Source: Planktothricoides raciborskii GIHE-MW2 (GTDB lineage: Bacteria > Cyanobacteriota > Cyanobacteriia > Cyanobacteriales > Laspinemataceae). From it: a stretch of DNA of 64,000 bases. Both the position numbers and the translations under genes were made by a program. Position 1 is the stretch's first letter; each line of letters begins with the position of its first letter. Positions 2,494 through 7,883 of the stretch are shown piece after piece. The notes under the pieces are model-generated. The model was given only the letters and a program-made list of their open reading frames with translations. It made no database searches and was not told the origin of the DNA. The stretch lies in the NCBI RefSeq assembly GCF_040564635.1, contig NZ_CP159837.1:5133001-5197000 (forward strand), written 5' to 3'.

Positions 2494-2952
2494 ACCTGTT
2501 GACTTTTGCCCGTGTCCTTTGTGCTTGGATGAGTTTTAATTTAAATCAATCATCAATCAATACACCACAAAGACACAAAGAACACAAAGGAGACAAAAAA
2601 CAGGTGGTTGTTAAATGCCCACGGGTTTTAACCGGGGGCGATCACTTTTTTGATTTTTTCACCCTTGTGTAAAGTTTTGTGAAATCACCTGGGGGGAATT
2701 TCTGGTAAAAATACTTATGAAATCCCGGAAAAATTCGCCCAGATTTTCGCCCAGATTGATTTCAAAATACTCCCCAGGGAGTGCGAAGAGAGTGCGATCG
2801 CTCTCTTGTTTTCCTCTATAACCGGCGATCCCCTCCAGGATAGAGAAGCCGCTGTAACCGTGAAACCGCAAGGATTTGAAAGCAGCATCTAGCAGCAATT
2901 TTAGTTGATTTTTTAGTCAATTTTTTAGCGTTCATCGGATAAATTGTAAACA
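2494..2952. other. Intergenic, no convincing gene
   Basis: Contains a short ACACAAAG-type direct repeat near 2569-2592 and otherwise ordinary sequence. A minus-strand frame at 2659-2898 exists but has no recognisable domain or ribosome binding site, so it is not called. Confidence 0.5.
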
Positions 2953-3246
2953 TTTGTATCATTTACTTGCACTGAGAAAAAGTTGTGATAGATTGATAAC
3001 AGAAGCAAGAAAGCTTCCCTGGCAGATCAAACAGTTACGTTCACTTACTAAAAAAAGAGGTTCATTCTGTTTAATCAAACATCTGTCTCGTTTAACAACA
3101 ATAGCACCCTGACCGAGGGCTGATACTTCCTAAAGTGATTAATCGGCAGCAAATTCATTCAAGATCCTTGATTGAAAATCTGCGAATAAATTATAGCAAT
3201 TACAGGAAGTCACTCAGTTTTTATGGCCTGGGTGCTATTGTCTTTT
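2953..3246 (+). ncRNA. Candidate structured noncoding RNA, copy 1 of a duplicated unit
   Basis: A promoter-like pair TTGCAC (2967) and TAGATT with a 16-base spacer precedes GAAGC/GCTTC and CAGAT-AAACAG / CTGTTT-ATCTG hairpins. A long rod follows: CAATAGCACCC (3099) pairs exactly with GGGTGCTATTG (3230-3240). Inside it CTGA-T-ACTTCCT pairs with AGGAAGT-CAC-TCAG, and a nested hairpin GCAG...TTCA-T-TCAAG / CTTGA-T-TGAA...CTGC caps it. The unit ends in TCTTTT. Copy 2 differs at only about seven places, and the change in the apical hairpin falls in its loop. There is no ORF. The family was not recognised. Omega-RNA/HEARO-like or retron-like RNA are untested ideas, and no IscB, TnpB or reverse transcriptase lies in the window. 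Confidence 0.55.
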
Positions 3247-3314
3247 AGGGTTATTTTCAGGTTTTTTTAAAGAAAATCTTCAAGAGAATCAAGCAAACAA
3301 GTAAAATATAAAGT

Positions 3315-3608
3315 TTTGTATCATTTACTTGCATTAAGAAAAAGTTGTGATAGATTAATAACAGAAGCAAGAAAGCTTCCCTGGCAGATCAAACAGTTAC
3401 GTTCACTTACTAAAAAAAGAGGTTCATTCTGTTTAATCAAACATCTGTCTCGTTTAACAACAATAGCACCCTGACCGAGGGCTGATACTTCCTAAAGTGA
3501 TTAATCGGCAGCAAATTCATTCAAGTTTCTTGATTGAAAATCTGCGAATAAATTATAGCAATTACAGGAAGTCACTCAGTTGTTATGGCCTGGGTGCTCT
3601 TGTTTTGT
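3315..3608 (+). ncRNA. Candidate structured noncoding RNA, copy 2
   Basis: The same unit displaced by exactly 362 bases with no indels. The promoter-like pair, all hairpins and the ACTTCCT/AGGAAGT pairing are kept. The apical loop is TTT instead of ATC between unchanged TCAAG and CTTGA arms. The closing stem has one mismatch (GGGTGCTCTTG), so copy 1 has the better closing helix. The ~70 bases between the copies are unrelated, so this is a spaced direct duplication or two insertions of one small element. Confidence 0.55.
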
Positions 3609-3683
3609 GAGCAAAAATTAAACACCACAAATAATTACAGCGGTTTTCAGATTACTAAACCGCGAGCAGGCCTGTGCAATATT

Positions 3684-3828
3684 GTAGGGGCGAATGCGCT
3701 CGTCGCCCCTGCTGCCGGAATTCTTTGCCCCTACAACAATTTGTGGTTTACTCCACAGAAAAGCGCTGTAACGCGCAAATCCTTAAAGCACAAATAAAGC
3801 ACAAATAAAGCACAAATAAAGCACAAAT
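3684..3828. repeat. GTAGGGGC-type inverted repeat and 11-mer tandem repeat
   Basis: TTGTAGGGGC near 3689 is complementary to GCCCCTACAA near 3728, a looser member of the GTAGGGG hairpin family seen at 16389, 23190 and 41206. Downstream at 3784-3828 the 11-mer TAAAGCACAAA is repeated four times just before the end of the next gene on the other strand. Confidence 0.7.
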
Positions 3829-3898
3829 AATGAAAGCGCCGGCCAGTTTTTTAACACCTAACCCGCGCTCTTAACTTTTACGGTTGGCATGGGATAAT

Positions 3899-6599: not shown

Positions 6600-7883
6600 A
6601 TGATTCCCAAAATCACCCCTAAGCCCAAAAAATCTGGGTCAATATTTATCCGATTTAGACTGACTCAAAACGGTAAGCAGAAAAATTATGAAATGACTTT
6701 GCCACTTAAATGGGATGATTGACGGGACCGCCGTAAGGCTGAAAAAATTGCAGATATCATTAAACAAGATATCAAACATGATTTTGTAGGATTACAACCA
6801 CCGGCATTTGACCCAACACTGCAAAAGTATCGCCCTGGATTAAAAATTGCGGTGGCGCCAAAAATCCCATCATTGCTAGATGTTTGGATTAAGTTTGTTG
6901 ATTTCAAAACTCAGCAAGGGAAAGTCGAAGAAACAACATTGACAAAAGCTTATCCCCTTGTCACAAAAATCCTTACAAAAGTTGACCCAGAGTTACTTAA
7001 GCCTAGTAACTATAAACAACTTTTGAGTTTTTTAACCAAACGTTACAAACCAAGCACCTTGGTTTCTTACTACACAAAGATATCTGCTTGCGCTAATTGG
7101 GCCTTAAAACAAGACATCTGGGAAAAAAATCCTTATAGCCGTGATTTAGCCATTTTAAAGAGTCAGTGTGAAAATCCTGATAAATCTGGTAAGGCTTATT
7201 CTGACTCTGAAGCTACTGTAATTCTCAACGCGATCGCCACTGACCGATTGACCCCACCCCGTGCCTGGACCAAACATTCTTACTATGCTCAGTTTTTACA
7301 ATTCATGTTTCTGACCGGGGTCCGACCGCAATTAGCGATCGCTCTGGAGTGGGAACAAATTGTGTGGGAACGGGACCGGCCTATCAAGATTTACTTTGAC
7401 CGTGCCTACACATCTGGGATTCTTAAACCGAGTAAGGGCGATCGCAATGGCAAAAACACCCCACGGGTTTTTCCGGTTAACTCTGAACTCGCAGATTTAA
7501 TCATGGCAATTCCCAAAAAAGAGACGATTCACCGTGAACCAAGAATTTCCCGTCATTTAAAGACTATCGATCGCCCTCATTGCCCCGATCTGGTTTTTCC
7601 GTCACCCCGTCGTTGGTATATTGCCATTGACCACTTTACTAATCGGATATTTAAGCCGGTCGTTGAGTCACTGGTAAAACTGGGAGAAGTCAGCGAATAC
7701 CTTCCGACATACCATTCCCGTCACACTACCCAGAATCGTTGGCTAGAGTCTGGGATGTCGGAAGAAGCGATCGCCGCGTTACTCGATACATCACCGACAA
7801 GGATCCGCAAGCATTACCGAGATGACCGTCTTGATTACGAAAATTTAGCCCAAAATATCACCTTGCCAGAATTAGGGGATTAA
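6600..7883 (+). pseudogene. Tyrosine recombinase/integrase with an in-frame TGA
   Basis: From ATG 6600 the frame reads MIPKITPKPKKSGSIFIRF, an arm-binding N-terminus, and meets TGA at 6720-6722 after LPLKWDD. It then continues in the same frame (RDRRKAEKIADII) to 7883. The catalytic part after the stop is whole: an SAM-like core-binding domain, Arg I in TGVRPQLAI, box II as YHSRHTTQNRW, and the Tyr nucleophile in RKHYRDD. A GTG at 6852 could start a 343-residue form lacking the N-terminal arm domain. TGG to TGA would explain the stop. It could be a damaged integrase, a shortened one, or a readthrough case. It marks the left end of the element that runs to about 13.7 kb. Confidence 0.8.

What the first reader, a model, noticed from the sequence alone, without database searches (positions are those of the whole stretch)
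2953..3608. Duplicated, strongly foldable noncoding unit: unnamed RNA candidate
Two ~294-base copies at a 362-base offset share a promoter-like pair and several nested helices, including an 11-bp closing stem in copy 1 and an ACTTCCT/AGGAAGT inner helix. Most differences lie outside paired bases, including one confined to a hairpin loop. The closing inverted repeat around a structured core recalls retron RNA (a1/a2), and ORF-less copies recall HEARO/omega RNAs, which are numerous in cyanobacteria. Neither was confirmed, and no partner gene is present.
Basis: partly seen in the sequence, partly recalled or inferred. Interest (0 to 1): 0.75.

Follow-up and report, generated by a model that had tools for sequence, protein, structure and literature searches.

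The report
Tandem light-regulated cyanobacterial small RNA genes
The repeated stretch holds two back-to-back genes for a folded regulatory RNA found across many cyanobacteria, most likely the relative of a known Synechocystis RNA (PmgR1) that helps cells manage stored sugar in dim light or darkness.

Summary
The window carries two tandem copies (about 3000-3245 and 3362-3607, + strand) of a structured RNA of about 245 nt, each with its own promoter region and a terminator-like closing stem. A covariance model finds five copies in this genome, 134 of 291 genomes of the class, and up to seven per genome. Base pairs covary strongly, including an apical helix that was not in the model. No Rfam family matches it, and nothing links it to retrons or HEARO. 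Synteny points to a known small RNA. In three Synechocystis-type genomes the match lies between hoxE and hypD, divergent from hoxE, where Ncr0700/PmgR1 maps: its transcription unit TU1715 is numbered next to the hox unit TU1714. The promoter has a conserved HLR1-like (RpaB-type) box near -56 to -41, which fits the published drop of PmgR1 in high light. Best reading: two PmgR1-family sRNA genes, made in low light or darkness and involved in glycogen control. The molecular mechanism is inferred. What is new here is the structure model, the tandem and multi-copy habit, the range and the promoter box. The family link rests on position, not on a direct comparison with the PCC 6803 sequence.

The parts
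3000..3245 (+). sRNA copy 1 (PmgR1-family candidate); the covariance model matches 2994-3247
   Evidence: R1 208.2 bits, E 4.7e-55; start inferred from the -10 position and the conserved 5' stem
3362..3607 (+). sRNA copy 2; the covariance model matches 3356-3609
   Evidence: R1 207.6 bits, E 6.8e-55; 96% identical to copy 1
2943..2960 (-). HLR1-like (RpaB-type) box of copy 1, GATACAAATGTTTACAAT on the minus strand
   Evidence: 15 of 16 fixed positions of the recalled HLR1 consensus; 57 of 109 family promoters have their best site here against a mean of 9 in shuffles
3305..3322 (-). HLR1-like box of copy 2
   Evidence: 14 of 16 positions
2989..2994 (+). -10 element TAGATT of copy 1
   Evidence: conserved T..A....T at -13, -12 and -8 before the 5' stem in 109 promoters
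3351..3356 (+). -10 element TAGATT of copy 2
   Evidence: same conserved position
3002..3017 (+). 5' hairpin GAAGC/GCTTC
   Evidence: helix 1, 100% of cells paired in 113 distinct sequences
3021..3087 (+). second hairpin GGCAGAT/ATCTGTC, with an inner helix ACAG/CTGT
   Evidence: helix 2, 99.6% of cells paired; inner helix
3055..3061 (+). near-invariant loop AAGAGGT
   Evidence: core G109/112, A112/112, G112/112, G111/112
3098..3241 (+). 3' domain: closing stem ACAATAGCACCC/GGGTGCTATTGT followed by a T-rich tail (terminator-like)
   Evidence: 10 of 10 pairs of helix 3 have changes on both sides; inverted repeat I1
3125..3210 (+). inner helix ACTTCCT/AGGAAGT
   Evidence: helix 6, 6 of 6 pairs with changes on both sides
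3146..3183 (+). apical helix GCAG/CTGC
   Evidence: A2 columns 410-413 with 533-536, not in the search model: 112, 111, 112 and 109 of 112 paired; one pair A-T in 76 and G-C in 36

Best explanation
The region holds two complete, independently transcribed genes for a structured trans-acting RNA of about 245 nt, a member of the Ncr0700/PmgR1 family of cyanobacterial sRNAs. Shown here: a conserved structure with covariation, an own promoter with an HLR1-like box and a terminator-like stem per copy, an old tandem duplication with a second triplet elsewhere in the genome, and presence in much of the class. Strongly inferred: identity with PmgR1, from the hoxE-adjacent position in Synechocystis. Inferred from literature on Synechocystis: it is made in dim light or darkness, falls sharply in high light, and acts below PmgA on glycogen accumulation and photomixotrophic growth. 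Proposed mechanism: RpaB bound at the upstream box activates transcription in low light. The folded RNA presents a near-invariant AAGAGGU loop, which pairs with ACCUC-type sequences of target transcripts. Several gene copies raise the dose.
For: Two copies at 208.2 and 207.6 bits; five in the own genome; 102 of 386 phylum and 134 of 291 class genomes. Structure on 113 distinct sequences: 96.1% of cells paired, 22 pairs changed on both sides against 11.5 +/- 1.6 in shuffles (0 of 500), slid controls 43-60% paired; apical helix outside the model. Promoter: GT[AG]AA[GC]TTT in 55 of 109 upstream regions against 0.4 in shuffles; HLR1-like site 57 of 109 against 9.05. PmgR1 link: 3 of the 4 Synechocystis-genus genomes with a match (5 searched) carry it beside hoxE and hypD, divergent from hoxE. 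PMC4060947 says hox and hypD cluster in PCC 6714 but not in 6803. PMC11368403 lists the 6803 hox operon as TU1714. PMC5386190 lists Ncr0700 as TU1715 in 6803 and as the free-standing TU3047, the most abundant transcript and maximal in darkness, in 6714. PmgR1 log2 change -4.13 in high light (PMC12850537).
Against: No direct sequence comparison with PCC 6803 Ncr0700 was possible: that genome was not recognised among the held ones and de Porcellinis 2016 is not in the library. PMC5386190 gives only a 195-nt overlap between the 6803 and 6714 Ncr0700, whereas the model match in the 6714-like genome spans 298 nt. The Synechocystis copies are among the weakest (81-91 bits). A fourth Synechocystis-type genome (G019) has its copy away from hoxE. 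In single-sequence folds the GAGG loop is no more unpaired than average (0.44 against 0.40; 9 of 105 above 0.7), which weakens the seed idea. I found no expression data for this organism.
Confidence: 0.8

Rival explanations
1. A structured sRNA family distinct from PmgR1 that merely lies beside hoxE in Synechocystis.
For: The link is positional; length mismatch (195-nt overlap quoted in PMC5386190, against a 298-nt match); weak scores in Synechocystis.
Against: In the 6714-like genome the hoxE-to-next-gene gap holds this RNA, in the divergent orientation expected for TU1715 beside TU1714; hypD adjacency identifies the strain arrangement.
Confidence: 0.13
2. Same RNA, but it works as a protein-binding scaffold (RNP) rather than by base-pairing with mRNAs.
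For: Deep conservation of overall structure; the conserved GAGG and AGGA motifs are not unusually open in single-sequence folds; PMC12475003 reports PmgR1 in gradient fractions 5-12 with a peak at 8-9, near RNase P RNA and above the bulk of short RNAs.
Against: No protein partner is known from any call; the AAGAGGU core is as invariant as a pairing seed would be.
Confidence: 0.35
3. A cis-acting leader or riboswitch of a downstream gene.
For: 47 of 159 loci have the same 256-aa orphan gene directly downstream on the same strand, 23-342 nt after the RNA, like the 'actuaton' arrangement of PMC5386190.
Against: In the window no same-strand gene follows directly: the next gene, nnr, lies on the other strand. 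Other loci have other neighbours; tandem copies each have a promoter and terminator-like stem. The own-genome homologue of the orphan gene has no copy near it.
Confidence: 0.05
4. Retron msr-msd RNA, HEARO or omega RNA, or another mobile-element RNA.
For: Closing inverted repeat; multiple copies.
Against: No Rfam match; no reverse transcriptase or nuclease among the five neighbouring window proteins scanned; copies recur at a few shared genomic sites with conserved promoters and are absent from phage and plasmid records by blastn.
Confidence: 0.02

Closest known systems
PmgR1 / Ncr0700 of Synechocystis sp. PCC 6803 and PCC 6714
   Same: Position beside and divergent from hoxE in Synechocystis; abundant free-standing sRNA; light-down regulation fits the HLR1-like box
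   Different: Here in two plus three tandem copies at other genomic sites; longer conserved unit than the 195-nt overlap quoted; direct sequence identity not tested
6S RNA (RF00013, ssaA)
   Same: Conserved structured RNA of similar size, widespread in cyanobacteria
   Different: The genome's 6S RNA is a separate gene at G000:C1:871735-871920; no Rfam match here
NsiR1 (tandem sRNA array upstream of hetF)
   Same: Tandem direct repeats of an sRNA gene
   Different: NsiR1 repeats are short and heterocyst-specific (passages of PMC3610870; PMC4734099); no heterocyst restriction here
Retron / HEARO RNAs
   Same: Closing inverted repeat around a folded core
   Different: No partner protein, no model match, no mobility signs

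Membership tests
PmgR1/Ncr0700 | Gene divergent from and adjacent to the hox operon (TU1715 beside TU1714) in Synechocystis | tested here: met
   R1 match between hoxE and hypD in 3 of the 4 Synechocystis-genus genomes with a match; literature; the strain identity of G452 is inferred
PmgR1/Ncr0700 | Sequence match to PCC 6803 ncr0700 | not testable with these tools
   6803 not recognised among the five held genomes of that genus; original paper not held
PmgR1/Ncr0700 | Accumulation in low light or darkness, loss in high light | tested here: inconclusive
   Only indirect: conserved HLR1-like box; expression data are for Synechocystis
PmgR1/Ncr0700 | Effect on glycogen and photomixotrophic growth | not testable with these tools
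   Needs deletion strains
HEARO (RF02033, number recalled) | Match to the HEARO covariance model | tested here: not met
   No match at gathering score or at E up to 10
Retron | Adjacent reverse transcriptase gene | tested here: not met
   Five neighbouring window proteins scanned with Pfam: PMT_2, YjeF/Carb_kinase, SPOR, a weak phage-integrase match, none
6S RNA | Match to RF00013 | tested here: not met
   6S found elsewhere in the genome, none in the window

The most novel reading that the evidence does not exclude
The PmgR1-type RNA is a class-wide, dose-tuned, light-switched structured RNA that acts as an RNP regulator comparable in reach to 6S RNA, with the near-invariant AAGAGGU element docking on a protein or the ribosome rather than on single mRNAs. 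Its tandem arrays (two to three, up to seven copies per genome) would set how much sugar a cyanobacterium stores in dim light.
Probability: 0.2. Interest if true: 0.75.

Novelty: new member of a known kind. Interest (0 to 1): 0.5.

Why it matters
PmgR1 controls carbon storage in a model cyanobacterium, but how it works at the molecular level is open as far as I know (recalled; the original paper was not held). If these loci are its relatives, the alignment and covariance model give its consensus structure, a near-invariant loop to mutate, a conserved promoter box to test with RpaB, and a range far beyond Synechocystis, with natural copy-number variation. That makes the mechanism directly testable and would supply an Rfam family that is missing now.

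Tried and rejected
6S RNA: rejected, it is a separate gene. Rfam at E up to 10: four chance matches only.

The Nostoc PCC 7120 sRNA 2462444f (258 nt, Northern-verified, PMC4734099) looked like a candidate because a related genome, G132, has its copy at 2.53 Mb. Using Yfr1 as a landmark, neither candidate distance (3.11 or 1.54 Mb, my arithmetic) agrees with the 2.41 Mb expected in 7120, and 2462444f was reported as exclusive to heterocystous strains. Not supported.

Nodularia spumigena CCY9414 was recognised by its scaffold length (5,462,271), but the text lists no sRNA at 3.93 Mb.

Cis-regulation of the downstream 256-aa protein: present in 47 of 159 loci only. That protein has no Pfam or NCBIfam match at the limits used, only weak Pfam hints, and a low-confidence model (mean pLDDT 67.4) whose C-terminal half resembles DNPH1/TIR folds. 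Not pursued.

The GAGG loop as an open seed: single-sequence folding does not make it unusually accessible.

The promoter count used 109 of 114 rows; five lacked upstream sequence or an anchor. Alignment A2 came from 100 sources that I picked from about 260 fetched loci, and some loci are the same place fetched twice (e.g. L036 and L155), so counts over loci are not independent.

Full report
WHAT IS THERE. The window (G000:C1:5133001-5197000) contains a 300-nt direct repeat, 2940-3239 and 3302-3601, 96% identical, spacing 362, between a glycosyltransferase-like gene and the NAD(P)H-hydrate repair gene nnr, both on the minus strand. No open reading frame of 60 aa or more lies inside the units. 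The + strand folds far better than shuffles (z -4.24, 0 of 200), but so does the minus strand, so other evidence was needed.

RELATIVES. blastn with the unit found it in 48 of 99 related genomes, often in tandem. A profile over fetched loci showed that the whole unit is conserved: of the 159 loci searched, 131 have one copy, 23 two and 5 three at 40 bits or more, counting some places twice. A covariance model built from 46 units (A1; R1) finds five full copies in the own genome: the window pair and a triplet at C1:6067790-6069027, minus strand. It finds 102 of 386 genomes sampled from the phylum and 134 of 291 from the class, with up to seven matches per genome. The listed genomes without a match include many small ones.

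STRUCTURE. On 114 matches (113 distinct) from 100 chosen sources, the 30 model pairs are 96.1% paired. Twenty-two pairs show changes on both sides, against 11.5 +/- 1.6 in shuffles (0 of 500 reach it), and sliding one strand by 1-3 columns drops pairing to 43-60%. All 10 pairs of the closing stem and all 6 of the ACTTCCT/AGGAAGT helix covary. Because that alignment was fitted to the model, the better test is an apical helix that the model did not contain: its four pairs are formed in 112, 111, 112 and 109 of 112 sequences, and one of them is A-T in 76 and G-C in 36. The most conserved stretch outside the model's helices is AAGAGGU in the 5' domain (core G109/112, A112/112, G112/112, G111/112). 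It is not unusually open in single-sequence folds.

TWO GENES, NOT ONE DUPLICATED SCRAP. Each copy has its own -10 region, an upstream box, and a closing stem followed by a T-rich tail. In 109 upstream regions the strongest conserved positions are a block at -54 to -41 and the -10 region; the -35 hexamer is not conserved. GT[AG]AA[GC]TTT occurs in 55 of 109, nearly always at -58 to -55, against 0.4 in shuffles. Read on the minus strand, the block resembles HLR1, the RpaB box (consensus recalled, not from a call): the best site falls at -62 to -52 in 57 of 109 against 9.05 in shuffles, and window copies 1 and 2 match 15 and 14 of 16 fixed positions. The match is weaker in the two hoxE-adjacent Synechocystis copies shown (12 of 16, shifted). 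The tandem state looks old at this site: in Laspinema and a related genome, copies group by position across genomes (94.9 and 96.1%) rather than within a genome (88.3 and 91.3%). In the window genome and its sister genus member the two copies are nearly alike within each genome (96.9 and 97.6%) but 85.3% between genomes, which suggests homogenisation or repeated duplication.

WHICH RNA IS IT? No Rfam family matches at gathering score in the window or in seven related loci. The lead came from Synechocystis. PMC4060947 (passage) states that hox and hypD cluster in PCC 6714 but lie 1.62 Mb apart in 6803, and PMC5386190 gives 6714 as 3739 kb with three plasmids, so G452 is very probably PCC 6714. 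PMC11368403 lists the 6803 hox operon as TU1714 (passage). PMC5386190 lists Ncr0700 as TU1715 in 6803 and as the free-standing TU3047 in 6714, the most abundant transcript there and maximal in darkness (passages). Ncr0700 is PmgR1, described as acting downstream of PmgA in glycogen regulation (PMC6166021, passage). It falls by log2 -4.13 after a shift to high light while PsrR1 rises (PMC12850537, passages). RpaB can activate or repress depending on the place of its site and controls 22 promoters of regulatory RNAs (PMC12850537, passage). I recall, without having seen it here, that de Porcellinis et al. 2016 call Ncr0700 widely conserved and inversely correlated with light.

AGAINST THIS. The identification rests on position. 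The quoted 6803/6714 overlap is 195 nt, shorter than the match here (298 nt). The hoxE-adjacent Synechocystis copies are among the lowest-scoring matches (81-91 bits).

HOW IT LIKELY WORKS. Shown: a conserved fold, a promoter box, tandem genes. Inferred: RpaB-driven synthesis in dim light, and action on carbon storage in trans. The final step is open. Pairing through AAGAGGU is one option; a protein scaffold is the other, favoured by PmgR1 sedimenting near RNase P RNA (PMC12475003, passage). I give the family assignment about 0.85 and the base-pairing mechanism about 0.5.

NOT A RETRON OR HEARO. No model match, no partner enzyme among the five scanned neighbours, recurring genomic sites, and no blastn match in phage or plasmid collections.

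OTHER CONTEXTS. In 47 of 159 loci the RNA is followed directly by a same-strand 256-aa orphan protein, like the sRNA-mRNA 'actuatons' of PMC5386190; at the window site it is not.

Noticed in passing
L230:7791-9028 (G000:C1:6067790-6069027, minus strand): A second array in the same genome: three diverged copies (71.5% and 62.3% for the two pairs compared) just downstream of a gene that looks like sufR, with a sufB-like gene beyond (names by eye). The three are 100% identical in Planktothricoides sp. SR001.
   Followed up: partly
e.g. L086:1805-2572, L102:3406-4173: A conserved 256-aa orphan protein directly downstream of the RNA in 47 of 159 loci; its predicted C-terminal half resembles DNPH1 nucleotide hydrolase / TIR folds, with a low-confidence N-terminus.
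   Followed up: partly
window 3784-3838: Head-to-tail copies of an 11-bp unit TAAAGCACAAA, the last one degenerate.
   Followed up: no
window 3682-3736: Inverted repeat TTGTAGGGGCGAA ... TTTGCCCCTACAA; a similar GTAGGGGCGA sequence occurs elsewhere in the genome, suggesting a dispersed palindromic repeat.
   Followed up: no
window 6852-7883, + strand: An integrase-like gene (phage integrase and SAM-like domains, below the curated cut-offs) about 3 kb downstream.
   Followed up: no
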